Origin: Corythucha ciliata
Lineage: Eukaryota; Arthropoda; Insecta; Hemiptera; Tingidae
Assembly (NCBI GenBank): GCA_038030265.1
Contig: CM075939.1
Location: 42,327,253 to 42,391,252 of the forward strand
Reading direction: 5' to 3'
DNA length: 64,000 nt
Made by a program: the position numbers and the translations under genes. Below are positions 5,040 to 64,000 of the stretch, piece after piece (position 1 is the stretch's first letter; each line of letters opens with the position of its first letter). Below the pieces are notes generated by a model. The model was given only the letters and a program-made list of their open reading frames with translations. It ran no database searches and was not told the origin of the DNA.

Positions 5040-5730
5040 ATTTTTAGAGCGTGAATAGACTGTCGAGCCATTCTGTAGCGCAAGACCTAGCACGACGAAG
5101 TCGAGGTTTTACAGGAACGATTGGGGGAAGGGGCGAGTCGATGATTTGGTAAGCCAGAGAGGCCTCTGTTTCTTGGCGGTTCATTCTACCATTTTGGGAC
5201 GCGAATAGTCAGTGTAGCCGTGTTTTTGGGCGCCAATCAATAGTCCGTCTAGGCCAGGCGCAAATGACCACTTGGGCCATTTTTGGCAGGTTTATGGTCG
5301 ATTTAAAGTGTCATTTTGAAGTGCAGGAACAATCTGTTCTGATATTTTAAAGGGCAAGTACCATAAGTTTAGCCAATTTTATGTTGCGTAGAGTCAGTTT
5401 GGCTATTATTTAGGAAGAATAATAACCTGTTGTGTGTTTTTAGCTCTCAAATAGTCATGTTTTAGCCATTTTGGGGGACGAAACTAGTCATTTCAGCCGT
5501 TTTTAGCTAGCAAATAGTCTGTCAAGCTAATGCCGTCAATTAATAGCAATTTTGGCGCCCGAATGGCCAGTTTGGCCATTTTTGGCACGCGAACGGTCGA
5601 TTTAGCCATGTTCATGGCGGGGATCATGATCTGTTAAAGGATTTTCAGGGCTGCGCGAATCGTCACATTAAATATTTTTAGGGCGCGTGAAGTCATTTCC
5701 AAAGTAGGAATAAAGTTTAAATTCACGGCT
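5040..5730 (+). repeat. R2 ~30-bp degenerate tandem repeat tract
   Basis: The core TTTTTAGGGCGCGAATAGTC, followed by a GTTTGGCCA-like segment, recurs about every 30 bp with heavy divergence. The short open frames here are not genes. Confidence 0.65.
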
Positions 5731-5734
5731 AAAA

Positions 5735-6500
5735 TTGAGAAAACGCCAACCCATAGCCTCTGCATGATGTTTTGAGTCTAAAACTGAGAAAAAGTGCTAA
5801 TTCGTTACTAAAATTGAAACAAAATTTACCAATGCGGGTCTGAAATTTAAAATAAAGGTAATTCACGGCTAATACTGAGAAAATCATTAATTAGCGCGGC
5901 TAAAATTGAGAAAACCCTTAAATTTTAGTTCAATTTCGCTGGTAAAAATATAGATAACGCCAATTTGTGGCAAAAATTTAAAAAAATCGCTAATTCATTG
6001 GATGAAAACGGTAATAAAGTGATAATATTCCTTTAAAATTGAGAAAGTGCTAAACCCCTGCTAAAATAGAGAAAATACGCCAATTTTCGCTTCCGGAAAG
6101 CAACTTATTCGTGGTAATGAGGGGCTAAAATTTAAAAACCACGGCTAATTTGCGGATCATTTTGCAAGATCACTATTAGTGCGCCTAAAATTAAAAGAAA
6201 CGCTACTTCTCGGCTCAAATTGAGAAAAAGTGCTTATTCACGCCTAAAATTTAAGAAAATCACTAATTCACGGCTAAAATATAGAACACATTCAATTTGC
6301 ATCTAGTATCGGAAATACGACAATTCGAGGCTCCTGAAGGCAATTTATTTGAGGAAAAATTATGACGCCATAATTTGATGATCATGGCGATAGGTGAAAA
6401 GGCCCGCTAATTCACAGCTAAAACTGGGGAAAAGCGCTAATTCACAGCTGAACACTAATTTGCAAATAATTTTGATGAGCGGCTAAAATTACCATTCAGT
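5735..6500 (+). repeat. R1 ~30-bp degenerate tandem repeat tract
   Basis: The core CTAATTCGCGGCTAAAATTG, followed by AGAAAAACG, recurs about every 30 bp. Units differ by substitutions and small indels. This is the commonest repeat in the window. The tract follows the R2 tract directly. Confidence 0.75.
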
Positions 6501-6605
6501 ACACTACACAAGTGTAGTGCAGCGTCCCCTCAAAAAACATATGTTTCAATTCAGACCATCGCTCAAACCCCCATTTCGTGGACTTGGCGACCATTTCTTA
6601 TTCCA

Positions 6606-6747
6606 TAAAGGCTCGTTCACAAGCTCTATGCATGCGTTGTGTGGAGTCTATGCAACCAAACAAATTTATTCCCTCGAAAAATGAAGCATTTCGATAGGTT
6701 GCATAGACTCCACACAACACAAACATAGAGCTTGTGAACGGGCCTTA
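6606..6747. mobile_element. Foldback/MITE-like palindrome
   Basis: Inverted arms of about 51 nt, 6606-6657 and 6697-6747, match with only a few differences around a ~39-nt AT-rich loop. The arms share GTTCACAAGCTCTATG and GTTGTGTGGAGTCTATGCAA. It is non-coding and most simply read as a small foldback transposon. Confidence 0.6.
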
Positions 6748-6900
6748 AAAGAAAATTTCACGGGATTCTTGCTCGGGTAGATATCCAACTTTGCTGTATC
6801 GTGAAGTGTTGCGTCGAGGGGGGGGGGTGAATATTTGCGCCATGCAGACTTGTGGTGGAAGGGGAAATGCCCGTCCCTGCACCTTTCCTAAGGCCTTGAG

Positions 6901-9163
6901 CAGAGGTGGCCAACCCAGGGTCCGCGAGCCAAGAAGTGGCCCGCTGAGCCTATCACAATGGCCCGCCCGTGGCCTGCAGTGGTAAATTATCAGTTTTTAA
7001 TGTTGGATTTTGGCGCCCCTCGGATTTTTGAGCAAATAGAAAACGCTACAATACACGCCTCCTCGTGGGCGGCTAATCCCCCACCAAGTGCCCACTAAAT
7101 CCAGATTAAAATTGAAAATAACGCTGATTTGGGGGTGAAATTAAGATAAATGGCTGATTCACAGCTGAAATTATTGAGAAAAATAATTGATTCACTCAAA
7201 GAAGTGAGAATAAGTGCTATAAGAAAAATACATAGCTAATCCGCGAGGTAAAACGTTGCTTCACTGCTAAAATTTGTAAAAAGCTCTAAAATCGCGGATA
7301 AATTGAAAAAAACAAAAACAGAAATAATCGTTTAAAATAACGAAAAACTCTAATTCACGTTTGAGAAAAAGCGCTAACTCACGGCTAAAGTTACGAAAAC
7401 ATGAATTCTCGGCTTATTCAGATCGCAAGTTCGTGGCTCAATCTGAAAAAAATGTTAATTCATGGCTAAAAGTGGGAAAAAACTCTAATTAGCGGGGAAA
7501 ATTAAGAAAAAGTACTAATTCACGGATAAATTTGGGGAAAATCGCTCTTAAGCGGCTAAAATCACGTATTCTCGGCTAAAGTGAAGAATAAGTTGTCCAA
7601 AAAAAAAAGCGCTACATAGGGGCTTGAAGTATGGAAACGATAATTTTCAGCTTCTTAAGGCAAGCTCGTGGCAAAAACTTCGAAAAAACGCTGATACATA
7701 ACTAAAAATGAAACAAATCGCTAATTGGCAGCTAAAAGTAAGAAAAGTTTCTAATTCATGGATGAAATTGAGACAAACCGCTAATTAGCGGCTGAAATGA
7801 GGAAAAACACGAGTTCACTGCAAAATTCAGATAAATCGCTGATTCACGGCTAAAATGGATAAAAATTGCTAATTCATCGATAAAATTGATAAGAAGTGCT
7901 GAAGTGAGGAAAACGCCAATTCGCTGATTAAATGGGGAAAACGTCAATTCCCGGCTTCTGAAGAGAACTTCGTGCCAGAAAGTTGAAATAATCGCAAATC
8001 CACGGCCAAACTTCAGAAAAATCGTTAGGTAATTCGCGACGAAAATTGGGGGAACTTTAATTCGTTGATGAGATGTAGGAAAATCAATAATTAGTGGCTA
8101 AAATGAGGAAAAACGCTAATTCACGGCTAAAATCAAGCAAAATTGGTAATTGGGGGGGTTTATTTGAGAAAATTTGCAAATTCACAGAAAATTGAGAAGA
8201 AAGGAAAAGCACGAATGCAAAAGTCCGATAAATCGCTAAGATTACAAAAAAAGCAGTAAGTCGCAGCTAAAATTATGAAAAATCGGTAATTCACCGATAA
8301 AATTGAGAAGAAGCGCCACGAATTCGTGGTTAAAATGGAGAAAACACTCATTGGGGCTTCTGAAGGTAACTTTGTGGCTGGAAGTGAACAAATTCGCTCA
8401 TCCTCGACAAAATGAGGATAATGCGCTAATTCGCGGATAAAATTCAGAAAAAAAACGTTAATTCGCAGCGAAAATTGGGAAATCTCGCAAGGCTCGCTAT
8501 GAGGCTAAAATTAGGTGAAACGCTAATTCACGAAGTCAAGAAAAATGAAATGAGGAATTAAATTGAGAGCATTTGATATTTCACAGAAATAAATTGAGTA
8601 AATGGCAAGTCGCGGTTTCCGGAGGCAACTTCGTGGCTAAAATTAGAAAATATAGCGCTAATTCACGGGTAGAATCGCTCATTAGCGGCTCAAATCGGGG
8701 AAAACACAAATTCATTGCAAGATAAATCGCTAATTCACGGCTGAAATGGAAATAAATCGCTAATTCGCGGCTAAAACGGCGACAAATAGATAATTCGCGG
8801 CTAAAATGGGAGACAAATCGCTAATTCACCGATGAAATTGAGATGAAGTGATGGAAGTGTGCAACTTCACGGAGGCGTTGGTGAAAGATTCACCCGGGGG
8901 CGCTAAATGTCTAAGGCCGGCACTGCAATGAGCTGCCGCAGGGCACATTTTTTGTGCAAATGGAAAACGCTATTATACTGTGGTTAACTTTATGTGGTTG
9001 TAGTTATTGAACATTTCCCAAGTGCATTTTATACAGAGCGTCACGGCCTTTTGCTAAGATGAAAGTGTTGTGCTCGATGGGGGAGGTGGCGAGGATGGGT
9101 GGCCCGCCTGAGTTCTTACAACCAGGTTTATGGCCCACGACCAAAAAAGGTTGGCTGGCCCTG
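6901..9163. mobile_element. Non-autonomous hAT-like element carrying an R1 tract
   Basis: The left end CAGAGGTGGCCAACC at 6901 is inverted relative to the right end GGTTGGCTGGCCCTG finishing at 9163 (11 of 15 positions agree). The flanking 8-mers GCCTTGAG (6893-6900) and GCCTAGAG (9164-9171) differ at one base, as expected for an aged 8-bp hAT target duplication. Subterminal TGGCCCGCC motifs occur near both ends. The interior, about 7090-8850, is almost entirely R1 array with no transposase. A second end-like sequence, GTCTAAGGCCGGCACTG, finishes near 8924 and may mark a nested or older element. Confidence 0.7.
7090..8850 (+). repeat. R1 tandem array inside hAT-like element
   Basis: About 1.7 kb of R1 units (core CTAATTCGCGGCTAAAATTG). 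Spacing between successive CTAATTC starts near 8740-8820 is 30-31 bp. Apparent open frames on the minus strand simply read through the repeat. Confidence 0.75.
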
Positions 9164-10890: not shown

Positions 10891-13800
10891 GTGAGTTGAT
10901 CTCTTTTCTTGTAATTCTCCTAAAAATGTCATGTTGTAAACCCAGACTGTTTCTGCACTGGAAAAACAGACCTCGACAAGTTGAGAAGTGCCTGTCTATA
11001 AAGTACCTACTATAATACTTTTGAACTTAATCTAAGGAAAAAGTGTTGATGGTGACGGCCACGTGCTTCTTTTTGGAAAATGGACCTTGCGGTTCTTTTA
11101 TTACTCTTTCATTTTTACACTACAACTTGAAGTGGCTGTCTTATTCTTGGTCATGTGCCTTTCAAGGCATCAAGCCAGGGCGGGAAGAAGGCTGTCTTAT
11201 TCTCACGGATTACGAGTTGCGGATTCCTTTTTTTGGACCCAATAGGCATTGCATTGTGGAGCAGACCACTTCAAAGCCGAAGTGCACCCTCGACAGCAGC
11301 GAACCTTTTGCCTTCATTCTTGACATTAGCCTCCTCTATTTCATGTTCTTTTTTCCCAGGCTTTATTACAGTTTCGAGAAGATGAAGGGCGTATTTCCTG
11401 TTCAAACCCCAAAAACCAGATGTTGTTCCGCTCTGTGACTTTACTGAGAGGCGCGGATTCAGAGAGGGGCTCAGGAGGCTGATGCCTCGATGGGTTCGAG
11501 TCAGCTTCGGAAATCGTGAAATCCAAAAAATAATGTATCCGGACCCAAAACTTGTAATTTCAACAAATGGGTTAGTCTGTCAGCCTGTAAATGTTTCAAA
11601 ATATACGCTGCTTCGCAGGGAGAGTGGCAGTGTGCAGTAAACTTTGTTTGTGTATGGCAAACTCTTAGTTTTTGATTTACTGCACACATTCATTCTCCCT
11701 GCGAACCAGCGTATAATATCTTGTGATTTCACGGTATGAACTGTAATATTAGCCGCATGCGCAGCAGGCCAGGTAGTCAGTTGAGCCCACAGCAAGGCAC
11801 AAACAATGATCAGTTTGGCTATTTTTAAGGAACGAATCGTCTGCATTTCAGACATTTTCAAGTTCAAAAGCCTCACGTTGGCCATTTTTGAAGCACGAAT
11901 GCTAGTTTTCGTCATTTTCTGAGCACGAATGGTCCGTTTAGCCATTTTGAGGGTGTTATTAGTCGGCCAAGCAAAGCCTATCCAGTCCTTAGTACGCGTG
12001 TATCCAGTGATGAGTGGAGGGGGGTCGATTAGTTGGTAAGGTGGGGCCGGCCCACGTTTGGTGCAACAACACCAGTGGTCAGTTTACCGTTTCTAAGGCG
12101 CGAATAGCTATTCTAGGCGATTTTGTTCGGCACAGATGGCTATTTTGAAGGCGCGAATCGTCATTTACAAACACGATCTGTATAGCCTCTGTATAAAGCA
12201 CAAATATGATCAGTTTGACCATTCGTAGAGCGTGCATTTCTAGTACGAGTAAGCCTTTTTAGGGCATGGATAGCTAGTTTAACTATTTTTAGAGTACATG
12301 ACGTCATTTTAGACATTTTGAGGGCACGAAGGCTCTCAGTCTGGCCGTTTTTGACGCGCGAATGGTCGATTTGGCCATTTTCAGGACAAGAATAATCTAT
12401 TAAGGACTTTTCAAAGCGCAAATCGTAAGTTTAAGCATTTATTGGCCGCATAGTCAGTTTTGCCAAATTTATGGCTTGAATAACCAGTTTGGCCAGTTTT
12501 ATGGCCCAAACTGTCAGTACGGTGGTTTCATAGGCGGAAATACTCATTTCAGGGCAGGAATCATAAATCATATAATTTTACAGTCAGTTTACTTCGTTTT
12601 TTGAACGGGAATTTCCAGTTCAGCTATTTTCTAGTCGCGATTGGTCGATTTTACCACCTGTTCGTCGCAGTTTATCCATTTTAAGAGCTCGCAAAGCAGG
12701 GGTGGTTATATGGGGGGGGGGCGATCGCCACCCCCGTCAGCTCAGCCACCCTCAAAGAAAAGAGAGGTGAATAAAAAGAGAAGGGGAAGGGAAAGTTAAA
12801 AGAGACTAATGGGAGGGAAAGCAAATCAGATATCCAGATCTAATGCTTTTGCATTAATTGGTACTACCAATTTGCGGACAAATTAGTGAAATTGGCTTTT
12901 GAAGGAACCAAATCTGAGACATTTGGTTATGGAAGAGCGAAGATAGGGAGAAATTGTGGTTTAAAAGAGCCAAACCCACGAAATTTTGCTGTTGAAAAAG
13001 CATATCCCACGGAATTTGGGGCTTACGAGGACAAAATTGCCTAAAGTTTGGATTTGAAAGAGACGAATTCGGAGGTTTCCCGTTTGCAAATCGTCGTAAC
13101 TGGCTTTTTTGGTATCCAAAATAACGAAATTTGGCTTTTTGAGTTACCCAAATCTATAAATTTAGTTTTTGAAAAATATACATTGGCTTTCAAATTATTC
13201 AAAGCTGCGAAACCGATTTCAAGAGCTAAAGCCACGATATTTTGTTTTTGAAAGAAAAAACCACGCGAAATTAGTGTTTGAAACAGCATAAATTCTGTTT
13301 TGAAGAAGCCAAATCCACGACATTTGATTACGGAAGAGCGAATTTCCTGGGTGACACTGTCGTCTGAAAAGGCCAGTCATGACATTTGATTCTCGAACGA
13401 GCCAAATAAGTTTTCGCATTAACCAAAATTATAGAAAGAGCTTATGCCATGAAATTTGTTTCATCGTTAATCTTAAATCACCGAAATCGGGTTTTGAAAG
13501 AGCTTAATCCAAGAGATTTAGTTTTGAAAAAGCGAATGACCGTGAAATTGGGGTTTGAAAGAGCCTAACCAACGGAATTATGTTTTTGATCAAAATTTGG
13601 ATTTGAACGTGCTAAATGTGTAAAATTTGGTTTTGAGAATTCGAAGCTTGGGTTTAAAATAGACTCAATGACGATATTTGGTTTTAGAAAGAGCCAAACG
13701 CGCATAATTTGTTTTGGTTCCGATATTGAGCCAAAATGCCACGTTTTTTGATAGAATGTTCTGGATTCTGGGGCCTAATTCCAAGATTTTTGTTTTAATC

Positions 13801-16800
13801 AAATCTCTAACACCAAATTCACCCAGATTCTTGGGCAGATATCTGACACTGCAATACAAAATCCAGGCTTTGGGAAACAGAGACAGTGGGCTTTCCCACA
13901 GAATATTTTACCGCCGTCCCCGTCACGGAGGCCTAAAACCGCCCCTGTCGCAAGGTCAATTTGACAATTTTTAGAGCAGGATACGCCAGTTTGGCTATTT
14001 TTAGCCCGCAAATAGTCAGTGTAGCAATTTTTAAGGCGCGAATCGTAAGTTTTGACTTTTTAAGGCGCACGAAAGGCTATTATTGACCAATTTAGAAGCG
14101 CGAATGGTTAGTTTGGCAATTTTTGGCGCGTGAATGCTTATTTAACCTTTGGCTTTAACCTGAGCTTGACGAATCGACATTTAAGCCGTTGATAAGTCGC
14201 GTGGAGTCATTTTGGCTATTTTTATAGCCGGAATTGCCATTTTGGCTATTTTTAGAGCGGGAATTGCCATTTTGGCTATTTTTAGTGCGCAAATAGTCAG
14301 TTCAACCATTTTCAAGACGCGGATCATCAGTTTTTCCATGTTGGGGCACGAGTACAGTCAGTTGAGCCGTTTTTATGGTGGGAGTAGCTAGTTGAGCTAT
14401 TTTTAGGCACATTATTTCTCAAGCCCCTCTCTTGAGCAAATCCTGAGTCCGCGTCTGACTAAAAGCCTCCAAAAACTGACAACCCGTCGTGAGTACTCAA
14501 AATTTGCCGAATGTGATGGTTGGGTCCCAAAAGTGCTTACTGTGACCACACCATAAAGCCAATTTGCCCTGCTGTAATGTTCTTAAAACCCGGAAATAGC
14601 GAGTTCATCACTTATAAAGTAGTCATACAGCTTAATAACTGTCAATTGTGCTCTCTGGAGTTGACCAGGAATTCTAACTCGGGAAACTGCCTAGACTTCC
14701 GATCCGAGCGGAAGCAGCCTGTTCGAATAAAGGTGGCATCTGGTGAGGAACCCATACCCATGTGGAGGGGGGCTTGGTTGATCGAAATCAATTTTGTTAT
14801 TCCCCGTGAACAAAACGCGCTAGATAGACGAATTTTCAATTTTAGCTAAAATCGAATTGAGTGAAATTGGTTTTTTAGCGAGTAAAACCTACGAAATTGG
14901 TTTTTAGTGAACCCACGACATCGGATGTTTAGTTGACAAAATTTCTTAATTTTAATGAGAAAACCTAGCGAAATTGATTCTTCGGTTAGAAAAGTCATCG
15001 AATTGCTTATTCAACGAGAGAAATCACCTTCCTGTTGAACAAAATTGCTTTCACAGTGATTAAAATTGATTTTTTAGCGAGAAACACTCACTAAATTAGT
15101 TTTTTAGTGATCAAAAGCCTCGAAATAGTTTTTTTTGGAGGCCTACACCCAAAAAATTGCTTTTATTAACCTTCAGAGCTCCATTAAGTGACCAAAAATG
15201 ATCGTTTCGTTTTTTCGTTGGTTGCGGCCGATTTTTCGTCTCTAGAGCGGCTCGGAAAGGCCAGAGAACGCGTTGAAGTTCTTCCTTGGACTTTATGTCT
15301 GTCGAATTTGTGATTATGTGTCTTTGAAAAACCAGCCACCGTGGCCGAAAACCGGCGTCAGCATGGTAAGAGTTCGACTGAAACTCGAAGATACATGGTG
15401 TCCAATTTTCACGTTTCGATCATTTTCGATTCGCCCCTCAGGTGATTTTGGAGTCATATTTTCTTTGAGTATTTCGATTTGAGCCGGACGCGGTTTATGA
15501 GTCTCTCAGTCATTCCTTAATTGAACAATGCAACCGGTTTCCGCGGTTCCGCCGAGTGTACACCAGTGCCTCTTAACTTGCCAAATTTGATCGTTTTGCA
15601 TTATTATCGATTTGGTCGATTTTCTTCGGCTATGAGAAGAGCCTTGATGCTCTTTCTCGCAAGTCTGTGTCGGATGACCGACTGTTTTTTTGGCGGTTAC
15701 AGCTTTCATGTGGTAGGGGGTGACTTTTTTGTGGTTTCATGCGGAGGAGCTTTTCTGTGGTTGGCTTTGTTGGAGTTGCTGTTTCCATTAATTGCAGCTT
15801 CTGCGTGGTTTGGACATAATCACTTTCCAGAATGTGTTACAACCTCTATAATGTGTAGAAAACGAATAATTTGATTCTTCAAATTGAGCCTTCACGAAAT
15901 TTGGATTTTGAAAGTGCTACATCGCGAAATTGTTGTTTTTTTTGTTTTTTTTTTCAATTAATCAACCCTGCGAAATTGTTTATTAGAATGACTCATGCCT
16001 CACAAAATTACTATTTGAATGAGCAAAAAGCACGAAATGCTGTGTTTGGTGCTGTAAAACCTGCGAAGTTATCTTTTTTGGGCGAGGTAGCCCATCGAAT
16101 TTTTTTTTTTTTTTGAGTCAAGCTCGCTAAATTGGTTTTTCTAGTGCCCTAAACCCGAGAAATCGTTTTTCTGGGTGTGCCAGTTGTGGTTGCAGATTTT
16201 TTTTGTGTTCTGTTGTTTTTTATGGTACGAATTATTTGTGATTCAGCTTTAGTGTTCCGTGTGGGTGTGTTCCTTGTGGCTTTAGGGCTCCGTCCTTGCT
16301 TTTTAATGGTCCTCGTAATGTTGGTTCTATTTTACGAAATTTTCATCTTAATTTGTATGAAAATGAAATGAATAATCGGCTTAACTTCAATTTCATTTTC
16401 ACCCGAGGCACCGTCCCACCCAAATGCGGCCCTGACCGTTTCGACTCATTGTTCTCGTATTCGAGGACCGAACTCTGACATCTTTTTTGATGCAGAGAGT
16501 ACAACAAGTGGGTTTTGAAAAGAGCCGGGATGGCTCCAGAAGTGAATCGTTGATAGCAGTTTCAGCAAGCCCTCTTCTTTTCGTGAGTTCATTTTACATT
16601 CATTCTGGTAAAATGTTGTTCTAATCCCACCTTGGTCTTGTTTTTGAAAGTCGGCTCGATGTTGATATTGATATCGATTCTGTTGGCGTTAGTAACTTGA
16701 ATTGATTCGTTTGAAGCGACCGGTCTGTAAACCAGAAGGGGAGTGAATAAAATGAAAGTATAAAAAAGGTCGAGGATTGCCTCCCTCCTGTCTTGTGTTT

Positions 16801-41760: not shown

Positions 41761-42039
41761 GTACCGAGATAGGAGCGAGGGTGCCCACTGTACTAGAGGG
41801 GCGCTTGAAAAACTTAAAGGTGGAAAAATGAGGATTTTAAGAATCCACGTTTATGCATTTAGGTGCGTAAAAACGATTTTTTGACGTGCGGTTGGACAGC
41901 GATATTGGCACCTTTCGACGATCTTCAATCCTTCCGACGGATCAATCCATCACCGGAATCCATTGCGAGTGATCAATAAAGAGTGTAGCTGAATATTCTA
42001 TTTAGCCCACAAAAGCGCTATTCTGATTTCTCAACGGAT
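41761..42039. other. Non-repeat head between opposed R1 tracts
   Basis: It contains CTTGAAAAACTTAAAGGTGG near 41813, similar to heads at about 27045 and 61760 (both reversed). No gene is seen. Confidence 0.4.
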
Positions 42040-44529: not shown

Positions 44530-46110
44530 GTGCAGTTCTTTGGGGCGTGTACTCGGCGAAAAGTCTGGAAAAATCGCAATACTCGTTGCGAAAACTGTCC
44601 CATTCCTGAACAAAGAAAAGAAAAGGCACTATTTGACGGTTTTAATTGAGAAAAATCGCTGATTAGTGGGTAAAATTAGGACGAAAGCTAATTCGCCGTC
44701 AAAATAATAATTCGAAATACTCAAAAATTAATTATGGGATGAAATTGATTTTAAAAAATGCTAATTTGCTGATAAAATAGAGAATAATAGACAATTCTTG
44801 GACGAAATTGAGAAAAAACTCTAAAATTCATGGATAATGTTGAATAAACGAAGATTCGCGGATACAAATGAAGCAAAAAAATCAGTAGTTCGCAGCTAAA
44901 TAATAGCGAAAACGTTGATTCGTGGTACGTAGAGCGTAGATGAGGCCATTTTAGAGCTTAAAAGCAGAAAAAAAATCGCCTATTCGCGAATGAAGAAAAG
45001 AAAGGGCGGAAAAATCGCTAATTATCGGCTAAAATTATGACAAACGCTAATTCACAGTAAAAATGGAGAAAATTCTATAATTAAATTGAGAAAAAGCGCT
45101 AATTAGCTGCTGAAATGAGAACAAAATGTAATTAATTAAACCGCGAATAAAATATAAAAAATCGGCGATTCACGGCAGAAATTGAGAAAATGCTGATCGT
45201 GGTGTAATAGAAAAAGCCATTCTACGGCTACCATTTAGGAGAAAAACGCCAGGCATACGTCTAAAATTGCGAAAAATCGTCCATTCATGAGCAAATAAAA
45301 GAATGGGCGCTTTTTACATTACAACAAACGCTAATTCACAGCAAAAATTGAGAAAATTGGATAATTAAATTGCTTCTTAAAGTGAAATAAATCGCTAATT
45401 CGTGAATGAAAGTGAGAAAATGTGCTAATGAACGTCTAAAATTATTTAAAAGCTAATTTGCGGCCAGAATTGAAAATACGCTAATTAATTCGCGGATATA
45501 AAATTGAAAAATATCGCAAATTCGTGAATGAAACTGAGAAAAAACGTTAATTTTATGATACTAGTCACCACTGAATTCGTCTTCTAGAGTTCTGAAACAT
45601 GAGAAAAATATGACACGACCCATGTTTGCCACCGTCACGACGAGACCAATAGTGCATTTTCAAAATGAAATGCACTAAAAACATCACTAATTCGTGGCTA
45701 AAAGTGAGGAAAGGCTAATTCGCGAAAAATAGAGAAAATCATTTTACGGCTAAAACGTAGGGAAAACCGCCAAGCAAATGTATAAAATGCTAAAACTCGC
45801 CCATTCGCGAACAAAAAAATAAATAAAAGGCGCTTATTGGGCTCTTCAAATGGGAACAATCGCTAACTAGCTGCTAAAATTATGATGGCAAACGCTAATT
45901 CACAGCAAACGTTGAGAAAATTCGATCATTAAATCGCGCAGAAAAACGTTAATTAGCGATTACTGATGAACAAAATTAATTACCTAAATAGCTAAATATG
46001 AGGGGAAAACGTTAATTTGTGATATCTGATTGCAACTTTACTTCTAAAATTAAGGAAAATGTCTATTTCGCTATTTGCAGACGCTTATACTTGGGTAAAA
46101 ATTGAGGAGC
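44530..46110 (+). repeat. R1 tract with conserved head
   Basis: The head GTGCAGTTCTTTGGGGC at about 44531 is like those at 19194 and 51965. It is followed by about 1.5 kb of R1 units, with a few reversed or unique interruptions (for example 45560-45660). Confidence 0.65.
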
Positions 46111-46139
46111 AGCGCTCATTCGTGGTTTAACTGTGGCGC

Positions 46140-46385
46140 TAATAAAATGGCTAAACTCGCGCCCTGAAAATAGGCAAACTGCGCTATTCAAGCCCCAGTA
46201 GACTAGCGTGAAGGACGTTATTCACGCCCTAAGAATAGCAAAACTGAAAATTTGCTTGCTAAAAATGACCAAACTTGGCTGTTGGCGCCCTAAAATTGGC
46301 AAAATTAACTCAATTCGCCCTGAAAGAAGTGGCTAATAAATCTGATGATTCGCGTATGCCTACACAAAATGGCTAAACTCTTGGT
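46140..46385 (-). repeat. R2 units, inverted orientation
   Basis: Copies such as CGCCCTAAGAATAGCAAAAC are the reverse of the R2 core. This short tract joins directly to the R1 array. Confidence 0.5.
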
Positions 46386-46619
46386 CTTTCGTGGCTTACA
46401 ATGATGAACTCAATATGTTTCAAATTTAAGTCGGACACGCGTTTATTAGTCCCTCGCGCAGTCCTTACAATATGCTCAAATGACAAGCGTAGCCTATGTT
46501 GAGGTTTTTTTTGGAAAAAAATCACGGGCCGGAATTGAATAAAACCGCTGGATCGGTGCCTTGTATCGGAGTAATGCATAATTGGAAAACAAACAGAAGG
46601 AAACAACAACTTTTCTTCT

Positions 46620-48354: not shown

Positions 48355-48530
48355 CAGTGGCGTAGGAAGGAATTTGTCCTGGGGGGGGGGTCAGATTGAA
48401 ATCTCGTAAGGGTGAGGGGAGGGGGGGGAATTTCACATTTTAGCCATCATTCCACCCAGCCAGCACACTCTTGAATCTGGATATCTTGCTGGCCTCATCA
48501 TAGCCTCAATCTATCAGTTAAGGGCGATTT
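48355..48530. other. Orphan hAT-type left end
   Basis: CAGTGGCGTAGGAAGG starts at 48355 and is followed by G runs near 48380-48389 and 48420-48428, as at the other element ends. I could not find the matching right end or target duplication. Confidence 0.4.
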
Positions 48531-50010
48531 TTGGACTCTACCCGCAAATTAGCGCTTTTCTCAATTTTGGCCGAGTGTATCGTTCTTCTCAATTTCAGCC
48601 GCAGATTAGCGGTTTTGCCCCACCCCACCCCATAGCCATTAATTTGCGCATTTTCTCAACTTTTTATCCCGTGAGCGGAGTTTTGGCGTTTTCCTCAATT
48701 TTAGCAGCATATTACCGATGGCACTTTTCTCAGTTTTAGCTGGAAATTAACGTTCTGGGAAAGATATTAGCCGCAAAATTGGGGGACTTTTCACGAATTA
48801 GGATTTTTTTGGTTCATCTTAAGCAATGCATGAGCGATTTTTCTGTTTACTCGCGAATTAGCGGTTTCTCCACCTATTGCCATAAATTGGCGCTTTTTTT
48901 CAATTTCAGCCAGAAAAGTTGCCTTCAGAATCCGTAAATTGGCGTATATTCAGTTTTTGGCGCAAATTAGAATTTTTCTTAATTTCAACCGCGAGCGATT
49001 TTTTTAAATTGTAGCGGCGACGCTTCGTAGCGTTTCAAACCTGTGAATTAGCGAACTTTCTCAATTTCGGTCACAGATTGGCGTTTGGAGCAATTTTAGC
49101 TGTGAATTTGCGATTTTTTTCCAATTTTAGCCGCGAATTAGCAATTTTCCCAACTTTTAGGTTTAAAATTAACCTTTCTCTTAATTTTGACCAGGCTGAT
49201 TATTTTATTTTCTAGATGTTACCCGCAAATTAGCGGTTTTTCACATTTTACCACCGCATTAGCAATTTTATGACTTTTATAGGTATAGATTATTGCTTCT
49301 TTTCAGTTCTAACCGTGAATTAGCGTATTTTTCAACATACTATAGCCTTGCATGAATCTGCCATTTTTCTGAATTTTAGCCACAAAAAAGCCTTCAGAAG
49401 GTGCGAATTTAAATTTATATATATATATTTCAAACCAAAAAATTTACATCTATCCATCCATTTCTGTCAAAAAATTATCGTTTTTAAATTATAAATTTCA
49501 CAACACTTAATTCGAGAGTTAGTGATGTTTCTCAATTTTAGCTGCGAATTTTCGCTTTTTCTAAATTTTAGCAGCGTGGTAGCCTTTCCAACCCGTGCAT
49601 TACCTACCGAGTTTTGTCAATTTTTGCCAAGATTTGGCGTTTGACTCAATTTAAGCTGCAAATTAGCAATTTTTTCCATTTTTAACTGAGAATTAGCACT
49701 TTTTAGCGCTAATTGGTGATTTTTTCAATTTTTGCCGCGAATTAGTGATTTTCTTCATTTTGTATCCACGAATTAACGTTTTTCCATAACTTTTATATCT
49801 TTAAATTGCAAATTAGCGATTTTTCCCAATTTCAGCTGTGAAATAGCGTTTTGTACTAATTTTGCGGCCATTCAGCATCCTATTACCTATTTATTTATTA
49901 TTTGCCATTTTTGTCCAATTTTTTACCTGAGAGCGTCTTTTATTTGTCAATATTATAGCGTGTTTTCTCAACTTTAACCGCGGGGTTTGCCCAAATACAA
50001 CACTTTTGCT
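48531..50010 (-). repeat. R1 tract, inverted orientation
   Basis: About 1.5 kb of reversed R1 units (AATTTTAGCCGCGAATTAGC). An AT dinucleotide patch lies near 49416-49428. Confidence 0.7.
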
Positions 50011-50855: not shown

Positions 50856-50859
50856 TCAA

Positions 50860-51587: not shown

Positions 51588-54500
51588 CAGAGGCGTAGAG
51601 TTTAGGTTCTCGTTGGGGTGGCGACGGGCAAAATTAGCTGGGCATAGGTAGGGGGGGGGGTAAGTATTGAAATTTCGCAGTACCTAATTAGAAGATTAGA
51701 AGAAATAATATAACTGCAAGCACAACACGTAAGAACAAACATCTCATATTTGAACTGTGGAATCGAACTGAGAATTTAAGGGGCGTCTACTATAGGCTCT
51801 GGTTGTCATCAGTCATCACCCGATTAGACGGTGATTTGGCTCCATTCGACGATTTTCAGTGCATGAGACTTCGAGAATTGAATGTCACCGGTGCTCAGCA
51901 AATTGAGTACCTAGCTGATTATTTCATTCTCTGCACGAAATCGCTACTCAAAGAAGGCGCACTCATGTGTTGTTCTTGGGGCCAATATGTGGCAAAATGC
52001 TCGGAAAAAGCGATACATTTGTGATTAAAAGTCAACAAAAGCGATTTTCAGTCCAGAATTGAGAAAAAATAACTGATTCGTAATGTATAGAAGCCATTTT
52101 ACGGGTGGAATTGAGAAAAAACGCAAATTCATGGCTAAAAGTAAGAAAAAAATCGCGACTAACATTGAGGAAAAGGCTAATTCGAATATATAATGATAGA
52201 GGAAAATGGCTAATTTGTGGAATAACAAAGCTAAATTATGGGTAAAATTAGCACCTAAAATTATGAAAAACGCTAAATCCGACAAAAAATTGAAATGTAC
52301 ATCACTAAAAACGCCAATTCATGGGTAAAATTGAGGAAAAGCTTCATTTCACTGATTAAACTGAGGAAAAGTGCTAATTCACGGCTGAAATGAAGAAAAG
52401 TCTCTAATTCTCGGGATAAAAAGCGCTAAATCACGGCTAAAATTGAATAAAAAAATCGCTAACTCGCGGGTAAAATCACGAGAATGTGCTAATTCAAAGC
52501 TAAAATTTAGAAATTCACGCCTGAAATTGAAGAAATTCAAGGCCAATTCACGGCTTCTGAAGCCAAGTTTCCGATTAAAATAGAGAAGAGAAAAGTCGCT
52601 ATTCTCGGCTAGAATTGTAAAACTTAAAAGTCGATAATTTGAGGGGTAAAAACGCGACAGTGCAGCTAAAATGAAAAAAAAAACGCTAATTAGCGGATAA
52701 TATAAAGAAAAAGCGTTAATTCACAGGACAAAAACGGCACTTCGCGGCTTTCTAGGAAAAGCGTTATTTCACAGGTAAAACTGAAAAAAATCTTAATTCA
52801 AGGCTGCAATTAGAAAAATTCTCTTGTTCACGGGATAAAAACCACTGTACTTTGCTTACAATACTGAGACAATACACTAATACACTCATGAAATTGAGCA
52901 AAATCGCTGATGAAAAGCTAAAGCTAAAATGGAGAAAAATTAGTAATCCATCAATGGAATTGAGAAAAACAGCTAATTTACGGGAAAAGTATGGGAAAAG
53001 CACTAATTCGCCGCTATTAAAAAAGGACGAAATGCCAATTCTTGGCTTCTTAAGCCAATTATTATGGGTCTAAAATAGAGGAAAAGCTCAAAATTGCGGC
53101 TTAAAAAAGACAAAAATCCCTAATCGGAAATATGCTCAAATTCACCGCTTAAATGGAGGAACACGTGGAGAAAAGTGCTAATCCATAACTAAATTGAAAC
53201 AAAATTGCCAGTGCGGGGCGGGGCTAAAATGTACAAAAACGGTAATTCACGGCTAACATTAAGAAAATCATTAAATAGCGCGCGGCTAAAATTTTAAAAA
53301 CCGCTAATTTTCAGTTCAGATTGAGAAAAGCGCTAATCCGCGGATAAAATGGCGAAAATATCAGTACGCTTTGCCCCGATAATACGCATAACTCTCGCCT
53401 TCTGAAGATAACTTATTTGTGGCTAAAAGTGAAAAAAGCGCTAATCCATCGCTAAAAGTACCCAAAAAAGAATGGTCACAGCGGAAAATTGTAACCAAAG
53501 TAGCAAAAAAAAAAAAGTAAATACTTTGGCTAATTAGCGGATAATTTTGAAAAATCGCTAATTAGTGCGCCTAAAATTAAGAGAAGCGCTATTTTTCAAT
53601 TCAGATTGATAAAATGTGCTAATTCGCTGCTTAAAATTGGGGAAAATGCAAAACTGTGCCAAAAATTGAAAAAATGTGCTAATTAGCTGCTTAAAATTGG
53701 GGAAAACGCAAAACTGTGCCAAAAATTGAGAAACATCGCTAATTTTGCTACTAAAACAAATGAAAAGCACTAATTCGTGCCTAAAACAGAGACAAATTTC
53801 AATTTGTGCCTAAAATTGAGAATATACCAATTCTGGGCTTTTATTTAGGCAACTTATTTCTAGCTCAAAATTTAGGAAAGCGCCAATTCACGGCTATTAG
53901 TGAAAAAAACTGCTAATCCGCGACTAATACTGCGAGGATAAGCACTAATCCATAGCTGGAAGTGGAAAAAAATTGTTAGGTCGGGCTATAAAATGTAAAG
54001 ACCCCGGCTTATTTGCGGCTAATTCTGGAAAATCAATAATTACGTCTTGAAATCGCCGGAGCGAACGCTCTCTCTCTCTCAAAAACGCCAATTCGTGGCT
54101 AAAATTGAGAAAAGTCGCTTGTTCACGGGGCTATTTTGCTGTTAAAAAATTGATAAAAAGCGTTGATTCGTGGCTATAAAATACCGACAGTTTCAATTTG
54201 CGACTAAAATCGTAGCTTCTGAAGGCAAATTTTGGGGCTATAAAATTGCGAAACAGCGCAAATTCTTGGATTTAGATTTTTTAAAAAAAAGACTTCTTCG
54301 TGGCTGAAATTGAGAAAAACGTCGCAAGCGCCAAAATTGAGAAAAGCGCTAATTCGCGGATAAAATTGACAAAAAAAACACTCATTCGCGGTTAGAGAAA
54401 TTCATCAATTTACGGCTTAAACTAATCATAAGCGCTAATTGGCGGATGGGGTGTAGAAATAATGCCAATACGTGGCTATAAAATAAGGAAAAAACCATAG

Positions 54501-54935
54501 TTTAACGCTACGTAAAAATTATAATTATTTCGTGTTTATCCTAGAGACTAAGGGGCCTCATTGAGTTATCTGCCCCGGGCCCCGATAGTTGTAGTGCTTC
54601 TAGTACCAATTTCGCGACAGTAAAATGGAGAAGTCGCCACTAATTCGCTAATTCATAGATGAAATTGAGAAAAAGTGCTAATTTGCGGCTAAAATATTGA
54701 AAAAAGCTTGCTCAAATTAAGAAAAATCGCTTCTTCGCGGATAAAATGCAGAAAAAGCGCTAATTCGCGGTTTAAATTAAGAAAATACCATAGTACATCA
54801 CCCTTTGTTGGACGATATTGTTGAAAATCAGGTAAAAACATTGTGGGGGGGGGGGCGAAAAGGTATACCTTTGCCCACCCAATAGGAACATTGGGTGGGC
54901 GATGGCCCATCACCCCCCCTAACTCTACGCCTCTG
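51588..54935. mobile_element. Non-autonomous hAT-like element carrying an R1 tract
   Basis: Perfect 15-bp terminal inverted repeats: CAGAGGCGTAGAGTT at 51588, and its reverse complement ending at 54935. The right flank GAAGTTGC (54936-54943) is matched on the left by GAAGTTAGC (51579-51587), an 8-bp target duplication with one extra base. G-rich subterminal runs are at 51651-51660 and 54844-54854. A head containing GTGTTGTTCTTGGGGC lies near 51965, then R1 array fills 52020-54790. There is no transposase gene. Confidence 0.75.
52020..54790 (+). repeat. Longest R1 tandem array in the window
   Basis: About 2.8 kb of R1 units in one orientation. Two near-identical ~63-bp blocks at 53610-53730 (each with GGGGAAAA-GCAAAACTGTGCC) show local duplication of a two-unit block. 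Open frames are repeat-derived. Confidence 0.75.
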
Positions 54936-59680: not shown

Positions 59681-60239
59681 CAGTGGCGGCGGAACCGGGG
59701 GGGGGCAGGGTGGGCGGCCGCCCCCCGGAATTTAGTCTGGGGGGGCGTCGCCCCCCCCAGGCTTCAATGCCAGTCTTCTATCCCGAATACTGCACCCAAA
59801 GTTCTTATTCTATCCTTTTCGCTTCTTATTCGAGGACCAAGCGACCGTCACTCAGATCGAAAACCCTGGATCATTTGCGAGAAGATGAAAAATAGCAATG
59901 CCTAGAACATTCGCCCCCCCCCCATCTTTCACTTTTCTGCAGACTTTTTGTTAGGTATATTATTGATTCTTCTTCTACACTTTACCCCTGCCATCTGGCA
60001 AAGGAGGGCGATCCACCTTTCGGCCACCCTCCCCGGAGAGGGTTTTAGCCCAAATTTAAGCAATATGAAGCACAGGCGTAGCAAGGGGCGTGCGGCGTGT
60101 GCGGTGCGCACCGGGCATCTCTACCCTGGGGGCATCAAACCCGCTGTTTTGTTATGCGATCACCGCTACCCAGTGGCGGAACAACACTTGTCCGGGGCCC
60201 GGGGCGGAAATCTCTAGGAGGCCCTTTAGTCTCTAATTA

Positions 60240-61720
60240 AACCGTAAATATACTTTTTTGCAGCTTTGAAGTATATATTTTCCTCAATTTTAGCCACGAA
60301 ATTGCCTCTAAAGTGCGTTTTCTCAATTTTTTCCGCGAATTTGCTCATTTTCTCATTTTTAGCTGCGAATCGGCGCTTTTTACAAGCTCTTACCGTGAAG
60401 TTGCCTTAAGAATCCGCAAATTAGGTAGCGTTTAAGTGCTCTTTCCCAATTTTATCCGCAAATTAGCGGGAAAATTTAAGCCGTAAATTCGCGCTTTTCT
60501 CCATTACAAAAAAAAACCATTCGTGTTTTTCTCTATTTATTACCCTCGAATTAGCGCTTTTTCACGGTTTTAGCCGCTTGAATTAGCGCTTTTTCTCAAT
60601 TTTATTCCCAAAGTTCCCCAAGAATGTGCAAGTTGGGGTATTCTCAATTTTAGCTGTGAATTAGCCTTTTTACCCCCAATTTAGCAGTGAATGGGCACAT
60701 TTTTTAATTTTAGCTGGAAATTATAGCACTTTTTCTCGATTTTTATCTGCAAAATTGAAATGTTTTGTACCTTAGTTGTGAATTAAAGTTTTCCTCCACT
60801 TTTAGACGCAAATTCGCGTTTTTCTCTATTTCACGCCGTGAATCGAAGCGCTTTTTCTCAATTTCAGTCCCAGCCCCGAGAATCCGTGAGTTGGCGTTTT
60901 CTGTGAATTCGCGCTTTTTCCCAATGTTTAAAGCTGCCAAATTGTAACACTTAATTATAATAGCGTGTTTCTCTATTTTTAGACTCGAATTCGCGTTGTT
61001 CTCTTTTTTATCCTTGAATTAGCGTTTTTCTCATCTTTAGCGCGTGAATTAGCGCTTTTCAACTTCAGCCTTAAAGTTGCCCCTAAGAATTGGCGAATTG
61101 GCGTTTTCTCTGATTTTCAGCTGTGAATTAGCGTTTTGTTTCTCAATTTTAGCAGTAAATTAGCACATTTTCTTAATTTTAGCTACGATTTTTAGCGTTT
61201 TTTCTCGATTTTATCCGTAAAATCGTAATTTTTCATACCTTAGCTGAGTTTTCCTCCACTTTTATCTAGACGCGAATTCGCGTTTTTGACTATTTCACCC
61301 GTGAATTAGCGCTTTTTCTAAATTTTAGTCCCAATGTTGCCCCAAGAATCCTTGAGTTGGCGTTTCTCCCTTTTAGCTGTGAATTTGCGCTTGTTCTAAA
61401 TTTTGAAAGTTGCTAAATTGTAGCACTTTATCACAATTTTAGCTGTAAATTAGCGTGTTTTTTTTTTCAAGACGACGCGAATTTGCGTTTTTCTCTTTTT
61501 CATCCTTGAATTAGCGCTTTTCTCAGTTTTAGCTGCGTAAATTAGCGCTTTTTCCTAATTTCGCCCCAACAATTCGTGATTTTGCGTTATCTCAATGTCA
61601 GCTGTGAATTAGCTAGCGCTTTTTCTTAATATTAACAGCCATAAATTTCAGCAATTTTTCTCAATTTCAGCCGCGAATCAGCGTTTTACTCTCTTTTACA
61701 AGCGAGTTTAGCCATTCGTT
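60240..61720 (-). repeat. R1 array inside the hAT-like element
   Basis: Reversed R1 units (CAATTTTAGCTGCGAATTAGC type). Blocks around 60600-60950 and 61080-61440 repeat in the same order (ATTAGCG, CCCCAAGAAT, GAATTCGCG), suggesting a higher-order duplication of about 460 bp. Confidence 0.7.
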
Positions 61721-61945
61721 TTCATCTTATTTACTTGAAAATCCCGATTTTTCATCTTCAAGCTATTCAGGGGCCCCCATCCGAACCCCGGATCCGGATT
61801 TTTAGTTATGCCCCTACCTGCATTCCCACACTTTGCTGTTTTATTTGAGTACGAATGATTATCGTTTATTATTTAAAACGAATACTTGCCATATTCTTGT
61901 GGCAAAAAAACAACTAAGAAATCAATAATAGTATATGTATACGCA

Positions 61946-62023
61946 GGAGCTAAAGTCGTGGCTCTAAAACGCCGTAAAATTTGCCGCGGTACATTACATT
62001 ACAAGCCCGGCGGGCGAGGCGAG
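61946..62023 (+). other. Exon-like island inside the hAT-like element
   Basis: TATACGCAG|GAGC and GGCGAG|GTAAAT bound an open 78-bp stretch encoding AKVVALKRRKICRGTLHYKP and six more residues. It is GC-richer than its surroundings. I recognise no family, and a single exon-like island inside a transposon may be chance or a captured fragment. Confidence 0.2.
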
Positions 62024-62739
62024 GTAAATCCCCTTCCTACGAGTGATGTACGACTTTTTTCACGCGACAGCAAGGAAATGATAAAACTGACTTTGACAAA
62101 TTGACTACTGACTTCTCGTGTCTTTAGTTTAAGAAGACCTTAAACGAGGTTATAACCCGAGTTCATTTACTTTCCGTACTAGGACGGAAAATATTTTCTG
62201 GACTAGTACAGAAAATTTCTCGAATGTCACTGTGCGGTAATGGTCAATTTCCCAGACATTTTTGGGTACAGAAAATGACTACTTTCGGAGCATGTCGCTT
62301 GAAAAATACTTCAGTTCCTAGGCATGAAAAGAGACACTTTTGGGACTCATTTGCGGCCGTAAAATTCGGTTTTAGTATCATGTGGGATAAAAATAAAATA
62401 TTATTAGTCAAAAACATATCAAGAATCAGACCGTTGTATACCACATTCAAATCATTCCCTAAATGCTGAAAATTCAAGACTGGGCAGCTCCATACAATAC
62501 CTTGCCTCCTCTATTTACTTAAAATTGAGAACTACACTACACTTTACCTTCTATTGATGAAAACTAAGGAAGTGATGGTAGTGTAGGGTATGGTGGGGAA
62601 GGGAAGGGGGGGAAGCGCCTTAATTTTTGCCCCCCCCCCTGAACCAAAATTCTTCCGCCGCCACTGCAAAAAAGGAAATGTCTCCAAAATCTGATTTCGA
62701 GTTCCAATGGATATTCACCACCAAGAAACGGTCTAAACG

Positions 62740-63111
62740 CTTAGCGAATTGGCGTTCTCTCAAATTTGAACTGTTGAATGATGATCGATTTTCTCAATTT
62801 CGGTGGTGAATTAGCACTTTTTCCAAATTTTTAGAGCAATAAATCACCATGGGCGTAGCAAGAAACAGCCAGTTACCCTTCCCGAGACTCGAAAGCGACG
62901 TAAGCCGTCGACTGAAATCGTGATATCGTGTTGGTTGCCTGCTGCTGGAAACTAAATGTGAAGGTGCCCTATGATGCCTAATTTAAAACCCTATTTTGCT
63001 CACTTATAATTCCAATTTCGCTAAGGGCCTCATTAAAAACCGTAGATTTTGCAACCTGATTAAACCTTTTCGCGTGTCCTGGCTGACTGAAACGCTAATT
63101 TCGAGGGGTTT

Positions 63112-63149
<38 letters not shown>

Positions 63150-63290
63150 TTGGGTGTCCGGTTCACAAGAACCCCAATTTTGACTCTGTATATTGCTCAA
63201 AAACAACATGGAAGCAAAACCACGTAATTGCGCGGATTTTTCTCGCTAAAAAAACATTCCGGGCCCATCACTAAAACGTCATTTTCGTGG
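62740..63290 (-). repeat. Short R1 and R3 patches, inverted
   Basis: A few reversed R1 units occupy 62740-62830. Reversed R3 units (AACCCTATTTTGCTCACTTA, AAAACGTCATTTTCGTGG) occupy 62980-63290. A pure A run of about 30 nt lies at 63117-63146. Confidence 0.5.
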
Positions 63291-63439
63291 GGTTTTCTTG
63301 CTGCCCCTTGCTCTGGCGTACCGTGGCAGGTGCGAGAGGGACGGACCACCCCGCGCCACTGTTTGACTGGGGTCCCTGAAAAGCTGAAAATGAAAAAAAT
63401 TGAAAATTTATAGGTTGTTTAGATTAAAAAAAAAAAATC

Positions 63440-64000
63440 GCCCAATAGCTTTTTGAATTGAGAAAAAGCGCTTATTCGTGGCTGAAATTGGTGAAAAATA
63501 GCTCATTAAAGGCTACAAATTTGCGAAAAAGCGCTGATTCCTGGATGCCATTTAGAAACTTGATTTTTTTTCCAATTTCATCCGTGATTTAGGGCTTTTC
63601 CTCAATTTCTGCCGTTTTTACTCAAATTCAGTCCCGAATTATAGTGCTTTTTGTCGCCTTTACTTCCATTTTACTGCGAATCAGTGGTTTTCCGCTATTT
63701 TTGCTTTTTGCCGCGAATAAAAGAGTTTTTTTTTTTTGTTTTTTTTTTTCAAACTTTTTGCTGTGTACTTTCCCCAAGAGGATTCAACACAGCAACTTTT
63801 CTTGATGTTTGCAGCGAACTAGCTCTTGTTCTAAATTTTAGCTGAGAATAAACGCTTTCTCTCAATTTCATCCTTGAACTAACGGGTTTTCTCAATTTTA
63901 GACGAGAATAAGGATTTTTTACTTTTCGCCCATGAATTGCTGCTTCTTCATAATTTCAGCCAGATATTTTTAATCAAGAAAATCAATAATTTTCGACTAA
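63440..64000. repeat. R1 units, plus then inverted, to window edge
   Basis: Plus-oriented units occupy 63440-63545. Reversed units (AATTTCATCCGTGATTTAGGG, CTCAATTTTAGACGAGAATA) run to the end. The tract continues beyond the window. Confidence 0.6.

What the first reader, a model, noticed from the sequence alone, without database searches (positions are those of the whole stretch)
5040..64000. Minisatellite arrays carried by hAT-like DNA transposons
Four separate R1 or R3 arrays (6901-9163, 12697-13947, 51588-54935, 59681-62666) lie between short inverted termini of hAT type with 8-bp flanking duplications. Most of the non-coding DNA here is such arrays. Seen: termini, duplications, arrays. 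Known: hAT elements have short inverted repeats and 8-bp duplications. Inferred: a transposon family has captured short tandem repeats and spread them, which would explain how a ~30-bp repeat became dispersed, in both orientations and inside introns. I know of no description of this arrangement, but I cannot search.
Basis: partly seen in the sequence, partly recalled or inferred. Interest (0 to 1): 0.82.

Follow-up and report, generated by a model that had tools for sequence, protein, structure and literature searches.

The report
Minisatellite arrays inside hAT-like transposons
In this animal genome fragment, stretches of a degenerate 30-base repeat sit inside small "jumping" DNA elements of the hAT type, which probably helped to scatter the repeat; transposons that carry tandem repeats are a known phenomenon, here with a different kind of carrier.

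Summary
It returns none in 40 Markov windows and none at ten displaced offsets over the same 22 terminus pairs. Removing 8 bp restores the register of the array into which element 2 inserted. The elements are 51-80% array.

This is not one transposon family: the four pairs of termini differ, and no transposase was found in the 18 ORFs scanned. Only 4 of 35 arrays (27% of array bases) lie in paired termini. Indirect evidence ties some orphan arrays to the same dispersal: two are collinear copies of hAT-borne arrays, a variant unit is shared by R1 arrays inside and outside hATs, and flank modules recur.

Best reading: non-autonomous hATs carried already degenerate arrays, inserted into one another, and often lost their ends. 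Helentron and MITE carriers of tandem repeats are published, so this is a new variant of a known kind. The genome-wide test could not be run.

The parts
6901..9163 (.). Element 1: non-autonomous hAT-like element, 2263 bp, 77% array
   Evidence: TIR 10/14, TSD GCCTTGAG/GCCTAGAG 7/8; array fraction
7095..8847 (+). R1 array in element 1 (about 55 units, consensus AATTCGCGGCTAAAATTGAGAAAAATCGCT)
   Evidence: cyclic-profile model; identity to own consensus 0.76; collinear with 40832-41756
8896..8950 (-). Module D inside element 1, next to its array (minus strand ...GCAGTGCCGGCCTTAGACATTTAGCGCCCCC)
   Evidence: score 35 against a maximum of 27 in 300 shuffles, matching 40760-40813
12697..13947 (.). 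Element 2: non-autonomous hAT-like element, 1251 bp, 71% array, inserted into an R2 array
   Evidence: TIR 12/14, TSD TCGCAAAG/TCGCAAGG 7/8; empty-site register restored by removing 8 bp
12868..13750 (+). R3 array in element 2 (about 26 units)
11802..12681 (+). R2 array, left part of the target of element 2
13954..14411 (+). R2 array, right part of the target of element 2
51588..54935 (.). Element 3: non-autonomous hAT-like element, 3348 bp, 80% array
   Evidence: TIR 14/14, TSD GAAGTTAGC/GAAGTTGC with one indel
51981..54503 (+). R1 array in element 3 (about 76 units); R1 resumes at 54642-54787 after module B
   Evidence: module
54548..54595 (-). Module B inside element 3 (GGGGCCCGGGGC...), also at 60181-60229; this copy shows no CAG-type end
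   Evidence: score 44 against a maximum of 22 in 300 shuffles
59681..62666 (.). Element 4: non-autonomous hAT-like element, 2986 bp, 51% array
   Evidence: TIR 14/14, TSD CAAAAAAG 8/8
60171..60229 (+). hAT-like end CAGTGGCGGAACAAC inside element 4, followed by module B and then the R1 array; no partner end found
60230..61763 (-). R1 array in element 4 (about 45 units)
40760..41756 (-). Orphan R1 array 40832-41756, collinear copy of the element 1 array, with module D beside it (end-like CACTGCCGGCCTTAG at 40785)
   Evidence: z=32.5 against unit-order shuffles; 69.9% over 999 columns; module D; no partner end
5701..6490 (+). Orphan R1 array, collinear in part with the element 3 array
   Evidence: z=9.8; alignment
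41820..42588 (+). Orphan R1 array 42069-42588 with head module C, also in element 3 (51757-51949) and before 44555
   Evidence: C1 score 36 (max 29), C3 score 64 (max 31); the terminus of element 3 itself is not in the shared part
44440..46406 (+). Orphan R1 array 44555-46406 with head module C, as in element 3 (51872-51980)
   Evidence: C2 score 60 (max 32)
48355..49392 (.). Single hAT-like end at 48355 (CAGTGGCGTAGGAAG...) before an R1 array (48505-49392); no partner end found
   Evidence: score 40 to an end of element 4 (max 28; a G run helps the score); partner search

Best explanation
The four intervals are old non-autonomous hAT-type transposons whose bodies are mostly a degenerate ~30-bp minisatellite (shown: termini, duplications, arrays, the empty-site register of element 2). 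They were presumably mobilised in trans by a hAT transposase encoded elsewhere (inferred). The arrays were already degenerate when the elements last moved and went along as passive cargo (inferred from unit divergence of 21-26% against 3 differences in about 32 duplicated target bases). At least four sets of hAT-type ends have carried repeats of this kind, R1 in three of them and R3 in one. Later insertions landed in or beside older arrays (shown for element 2), and decay of the ends left orphan arrays (inferred). Thus hAT transposition explains part of the dispersal; for most arrays here it is plausible but not shown.
For: Four terminus/duplication pairs, 4 of 22 candidates, 0 in all controls. 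Removing 8 bp from the flanks of element 2 gives the best R2 fit: log-odds 91.8, against 84.9 with none removed and 88.2 with 9; 6 and 7 are nearly as good (91.6, 91.5). Array fraction of the elements 0.70 on average, P = 0.012 by random placement, and 0 of 20000 with no array cut by a boundary. Segmental copying: 9 of 153 pairs among 18 R1 arrays exceed all 60 unit-order shuffles (about 2.5 expected by chance); five have z of 5 or more, two of them joining a hAT-borne array to an orphan. A variant unit, GGCTTCTGAAGGCAACTT with up to 3 mismatches, chosen by eye from these arrays, occurs 11 times (0.10 expected), all in R1 arrays: 7 in elements 1, 3 and 4, 4 in orphans. Shared non-array modules B, C, D and an end-like module at 48355. 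Unit identity to own consensus is 0.74-0.79 in the four elements.
Against: 31 of 35 arrays have no convincing terminus pair. The partner-end search for the ends at 8925, 40785, 41754, 48355, 54600 and 60171 found none. The head side of the element 1 array is not shared with 41757-41950 (score 18, shuffle maximum 24), and five of five comparisons of R2 flanks were within chance. The shared parts of modules B and C do not include a terminus in every copy. Proximity of hAT-like ends to arrays (28 against 16.9 expected, p = 0.003) is the same when the orientation is swapped (28), so it is no evidence. No hAT transposase domain in the 18 ORFs given to Pfam, of 60 listed of 100 aa or more. One of four target duplications fits nnnTAnnn. 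The age argument is biased, since elements with worn duplications are not detected.
Confidence: 0.68

Rival explanations
1. The 30-bp arrays are an independent, very abundant minisatellite of this genome (39% of the window). hAT elements are only occasional passengers that picked arrays up by internal recombination or nesting; hAT did not spread them.
For: 31 of 35 arrays lack paired termini; 73% of array bases lie outside the four elements. Element 2 visibly inserted into an existing R2 array. R1 is shared by elements with different ends.
Against: Some arrays are segmental copies with unit order kept, including element 1 and an orphan, which asks for some carrier or duplication mechanism. Modules are shared next to arrays. 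All four elements are array-rich, P = 0.012.
Confidence: 0.22
2. A different carrier, such as a Helentron/HINE or another single-ended or inverted-repeat element, spread most arrays, and the hATs merely captured pieces.
For: One-sided flank modules next to several arrays resemble the left/right consensus modules described for oyster Cg_HINE (PMC7492417, abstract and one Results section read).
Against: The four bounded elements have inverted termini and 8-bp duplications; module D, the copy of module B in element 4 and the module at 48355 contain or adjoin CAG-type ends. Helitron-type 3' palindromes were not searched for.
Confidence: 0.08
3. The termini and duplications are chance pairings in repeat-rich DNA.
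For: Element 1 alone scores p = 0.107 under the generic test; the loose scan is at the shuffled rate; the duplication of element 4 is A-rich; that of element 3 needs an indel.
Against: 0 hits in 40 Markov windows and 0 at ten displaced offsets over the same 22 pairs; empty-site register of element 2.
Confidence: 0.02

Closest known systems
Cg_HINE non-autonomous Helentrons of the Pacific oyster (PMC7492417; abstract, outline and Results section 7 read)
   Same: Short tandem arrays as central repeats of non-autonomous DNA transposons; several terminal modules combined with several repeat clusters; dispersal through the genome
   Different: Helentron superfamily with subterminal repeats and a 3' palindrome; here paired inverted termini of hAT type and 8-bp duplications
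Tandem-repeat MITEs: Xstir and miDNA4 of Xenopus, MITEs of the clam Donax (passages of the reviews PMC12628747 and PMC9659126; the Donax paper itself was not held, and was seen only as a reference title)
   Same: A non-autonomous inverted-repeat element carries a tandem array; long arrays may outlive the termini (model of Scalvenzi and Pollet as told in PMC12628747)
   Different: PMC12628747 describes miDNA4 as a Tc1/mariner MITE; here hAT-type ends, elements of 1.25-3.35 kb and ~30-bp units in about 26-76 copies
Tetris of Drosophila virilis (PMC4079207; abstract and passages read)
   Same: Non-autonomous element with internal tandem repeats that also form free arrays
   Different: Repeats of about 220 bp lie in foldback termini, 8-10 bp duplications, assigned by its authors to Mutator; here a central array of one orientation and short termini
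Mar, a hAT/Buster MITE of Drosophila willistoni (PMC3517528; passages read)
   Same: Termini CAG(G/A)GGTAGGC and 8-bp duplications, no coding capacity; much like the CAGNGG ends here
   Different: 610 bp; no tandem repeats are mentioned in that paper's main text ('tandem' and 'minisatellite' 0 occurrences)

Membership tests
hAT superfamily (non-autonomous) | Short terminal inverted repeats beginning CAG | tested here: met
   10/14, 12/14, 14/14, 14/14; published length ranges 10-25 bp or 5-27 bp (passages of PMC3942097 and PMC3517528); CAG start as in Mar (PMC3517528)
hAT superfamily (non-autonomous) | 8-bp target-site duplication | tested here: met
   7/8, 7/8 and 8/8 in three elements; element 3 only with one indel; removing 8 bp restores the array register for element 2
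hAT superfamily (non-autonomous) | hAT transposase, own or in an autonomous relative | tested here: inconclusive
   None in 18 ORFs of 60 listed; the rest of the genome could not be searched
hAT, Buster family | Duplication motif nnnTAnnn | tested here: not met
   Only element 1 (GCCTAGAG on the right) fits; the other three do not (motif from PMC3517528). Not filed as Buster
Helentron/HINE | Subterminal inverted repeats, microsatellite and 3' palindrome instead of terminal inverted repeats with a duplication | tested here: inconclusive
   The four elements have terminal inverted repeats and duplications, which Helentrons lack (recalled); palindromes and subterminal repeats were not searched for
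Foldback element | Long inverted termini themselves built of tandem repeats | tested here: not met
   In each of the four elements the array has one orientation and the termini are short
Mutator | 9-11 bp duplication (recalled) | tested here: not met
   Match length 8 in elements 1, 2 and 4; element 3 has 9 bases against 8

The most novel reading that the evidence does not exclude
The 30-bp array is a functional, interchangeable module: repeated transposase-binding or copy-promoting sites that several hAT families have exchanged and that let array-bearing elements outcompete others, as proposed for the binding-site repeats in the termini of Galileo (a P-superfamily foldback-like element, told in PMC4079207). 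On this reading the common ~30-bp period and the CGCGAA core of the fitted R1-R4 consensuses are traces of one binding site, and the fossil arrays record a competition that came to fill two fifths of this region.
Probability: 0.08. Interest if true: 0.75.

Novelty: new variant of a known kind. Interest (0 to 1): 0.45.

Why it matters
If it holds genome-wide, it adds the hAT superfamily to the known carriers of tandem repeats. It would also help to explain how a degenerate 30-bp minisatellite can fill 39% of a gene-bearing region in both orientations. It gives a clear test: array edges should be worn hAT ends. It also warns that repeat annotation with a tandem-repeat finder alone misses both the extent of such arrays (Tandem Repeats Finder reports only small pieces) and the carrier.

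Tried and rejected
Single-consensus nhmmer seeding failed for R1 and R3, so a cyclic profile model was written. Window-wide retraining let R2 and R3 drift towards R1; those R2/R3 coordinates were replaced by per-array fits. Of the 41 regions fitted, three weak ones (4133-4220, 4856-4951, 62744-62846) were dropped and three neighbouring pairs merged, which gives the 35 arrays; the 35 include one array of another, 16-bp unit (20590-20900), and both halves of the R2 array split by element 2. Proximity of hAT-like ends to arrays looked enriched (p = 0.003) but is equal with swapped orientation, so it was dropped. In the flank all-against-all (4083 comparisons, 40 rows listed) the five top rows are the same physical DNA seen from two neighbouring arrays and were ignored; several further rows repeat one match because a flank belongs to two arrays. 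The loose scan also listed 7563-8328, 16601-18882 and 49667-53678, without CAGNGG ends; since 4 shuffles gave 1, 6, 4 and 6 pairs, these three were dropped. The array 63383-63558 reaches p = 0.019 through poly-A/T runs only. Relatedness of consensuses: I had typed the R4 consensus with one stretch closer to R3 than the fit; with consensuses fitted to the data R3 and R4 remain related (0 of 500 shuffles reach the score), R1 and R2 too (2 of 500); R1-R4 is weak (23 of 500, six pairs tested) and the other three pairs are not significant, so one common ancestor of R1-R4 is not shown. Against the novel reading: the CGCG columns of R1 carry 0.68-0.80 bits against a mean of about 0.85, the two best-kept columns lie in A tracts, and CpG columns show C-to-T and G-to-A excess. 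Public collections: exact R1 or R2 patterns gave 0 hits in viral contigs and 0 in genome contigs; these hold viruses and prokaryotes, so they are weak tests. The organism was not identified: a protein search with the pacifastin ORF gave nothing, and the reverse-transcriptase search gave mixed named animals and mostly unnamed hits (best 120 of 289 listed). Rfam and tRNA scans of the window were empty. Literature: ten paper searches, all used. None of the listed titles and abstract beginnings names a hAT element carrying a minisatellite array; some listings were cut (20 of 66, 12 of 19, 12 of 16), and most subscription journals and Repbase Reports are not held. Passages of PMC2871265 (Trichoplax) were read and not relevant. 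Helitron palindromes were not tested.
Full report
What was checked. The window is eukaryotic DNA: a pacifastin domain, a LIM match just under its cut-off and a Gypsy-type reverse transcriptase were found. Pacifastin points to an arthropod (recalled knowledge; the species was not identified). Tandem Repeats Finder sees only small pieces of ~30-bp arrays, because units are about 25% diverged from their own consensus. A cyclic profile model with a background state gives about 25.1 kb of arrays, 39% of the window. The fitted repeat types are R1 (AATTCGCGGCTAAAATTGAGAAAAAGCGCT), R2 (TTTTTAGGGCGCGAATAGTCAGTTTAGCCA), R3 (TTTTTGAAAGAGCCAAATCCGCGAAATTGGC) and R4 (CCGCGAAATTGGTTTTTTAGTGAGAAAAAT, read on the other strand). 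Three one-strand Markov-2 control windows give 137-1256 bp per model, against 7.6-16.3 kb per strand in the window. R1 is related to R2 in reverse complement (2 of 500 shuffles reach the score) and R3 to R4 (0 of 500); R1-R4 is weak (23 of 500) and the other three comparisons are not significant.

The four elements. A scan for CAGNG[GC] ends, 500-4500 bp apart, with at least 10/14 inverted match and a duplication of at least 7/8 or one indel, returns exactly these four out of 22 terminus pairs. It returns none in 40 Markov-2 windows and none when the duplication test is displaced by 10 to 300 bp. The rule was shaped on the elements, so the controls, not the count, carry the weight. A looser scan with any CA...TG ends is at the shuffled rate and misses element 3. 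Under a generic score with 1056 mismatched flank pairs as null, the four get p = 0.107, 0.0038, 0.0189 and 0.0000; the only other array of 35 under 0.05 owes it to poly-A/T. Element 2 gives the cleanest proof. It sits in an R2 array, and joining its flanks after removing 8 bp gives the best fit to the R2 model (91.8, against 84.9 with none removed; 6 and 7 bp nearly equal at 91.6 and 91.5, 9 bp worse at 88.2).

Are the arrays a part of the elements? The elements are 77, 71, 80 and 51% array. Randomly placed intervals of the same lengths reach this mean in 1.2% of trials, and in 0 of 20000 trials with no array cut by a boundary, as observed. Element 2 has R3 inside and R2 outside. Three elements hold R1 and one holds R3, but they have four different termini, so this is not one transposon family. 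No transposase was found in the 18 ORFs given to Pfam, of 60 listed.

Orphan arrays. 31 of 35 arrays, holding 73% of array bases, are outside paired termini. Some are nevertheless long copies of others. Of 153 pairs among 18 R1 arrays, 9 align better than all 60 shuffles of unit order (about 2.5 expected by chance). The five clear ones join element 1 with 40832-41756 (z = 32.5), 42776-43024 with 58129-58930 (15.9), 5701-6490 with element 3 (9.8), and the neighbouring orphans 44555-45553 with 45676-46406 (8.0) and 48505-49392 with 49496-50126 (5.2) (three alignments). So two orphans are tied to hAT-borne arrays in this way. A variant unit, GGCTTCTGAAGGCAACTT, picked by eye, occurs 11 times with up to 3 mismatches (0.10 expected), always in R1 arrays: seven times in elements 1, 3 and 4 and four times in orphans 5701, 40832, 43614 and 48505. 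Outside the arrays, sequence modules recur next to them. Module B (GGGGCCCGGGGC...) recurs inside elements 3 and 4 (score 44, shuffle maximum 22); in element 4 it follows a CAGTGGCGGAACAAC end at 60171, in element 3 no such end is seen. Module C recurs before the arrays of element 3, of 42069 and of 44555 (36, 60 and 64 against maxima of 29, 32 and 31), without the terminus of element 3. Module D, with an end-like CAGTGCCGG or CACTGCCGG, recurs at 8896-8950 in element 1 and at 40760-40813 (35 against 27). The single end at 48355 resembles an end of element 4 (40 against 28) and, less, the start of element 3 (37 against 28); G runs help both scores. The other side of the element 1 array is not shared with 41757-41950 (18 against 24), and five of five R2-flank comparisons are within chance. 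No partner ends were found for the six single ends tested.

Control against my reading. Counting hAT-like ends near arrays looked enriched (28 against 16.9, p = 0.003), but outward-facing ends give the same count, so this reflects base composition or general transposon density and was not used.

Mechanism. The best reading is that non-autonomous hATs carried arrays as cargo. The two copies of the target duplication differ at about 3 of 32 positions over the four elements, while units differ from their consensus by 21-26%, so the arrays seem to have been degenerate before the last insertion; this is biased, because worn duplications are not detected. Insertion into older arrays (element 2) and end decay would produce the present mosaic. 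The share of arrays spread in this way is unknown.

Compared with what is known. Oyster Cg_HINE Helentrons combine different end modules with different short repeats and spread them (PMC7492417, abstract and Results section 7 read). MITEs with tandem arrays, arrays that outlive the ends, and capture of a pre-existing repeat by a MITE are reviewed in PMC12628747 (passages) and PMC9659126 (passages and part of its table). In PMC9659126 the two occurrences of 'hAT' are reference titles, and PMC12628747 has none. Mar, a hAT/Buster MITE, has similar termini and no mention of tandem repeats (PMC3517528, passages). So the carrier is a new variant of a known kind, not a new kind, as far as these searches reach.

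What remains open.

Noticed in passing
21724-21952: 229-bp element with 14/14 inverted termini (CAACGATATATAAA) and an 8/8 duplication GTTCCGCT, with no array of the 35 in it.
   Followed up: no
9794-10018: Perfect 47-bp inverted repeat starting TTAA at both outer ends, perhaps a piggyBac-type MITE (the family is a recalled guess).
   Followed up: no
28219-28494 and 29799-30073: Inverted copies of one sequence, 75% over 280 columns.
   Followed up: no
31255-31865: Cluster of direct and inverted copies (TTTGTCGAACAG...), with hAT-like CAGGGGCGCAAG ends facing each other at 31486 and 31640.
   Followed up: no
20590-20900: Array of a different, 16-bp unit TTTTTGTGGTTAGAAC or similar.
   Followed up: no
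R1 arrays, pooled: CpG columns of the R1 unit show C-to-T and G-to-A excess (0.14-0.35), as expected from CpG decay.
   Followed up: partly
55586-56281 (minus strand): Remnant of a Gypsy-type retrotransposon: reverse transcriptase (E 5e-15) and an RNase H match below its cut-off on separate ORFs.
   Followed up: partly
46623-47042 (minus strand): ORF with a pacifastin inhibitor domain (E 3e-07), suggesting an arthropod genome; no relative at E 0.001 in the protein search.
   Followed up: partly
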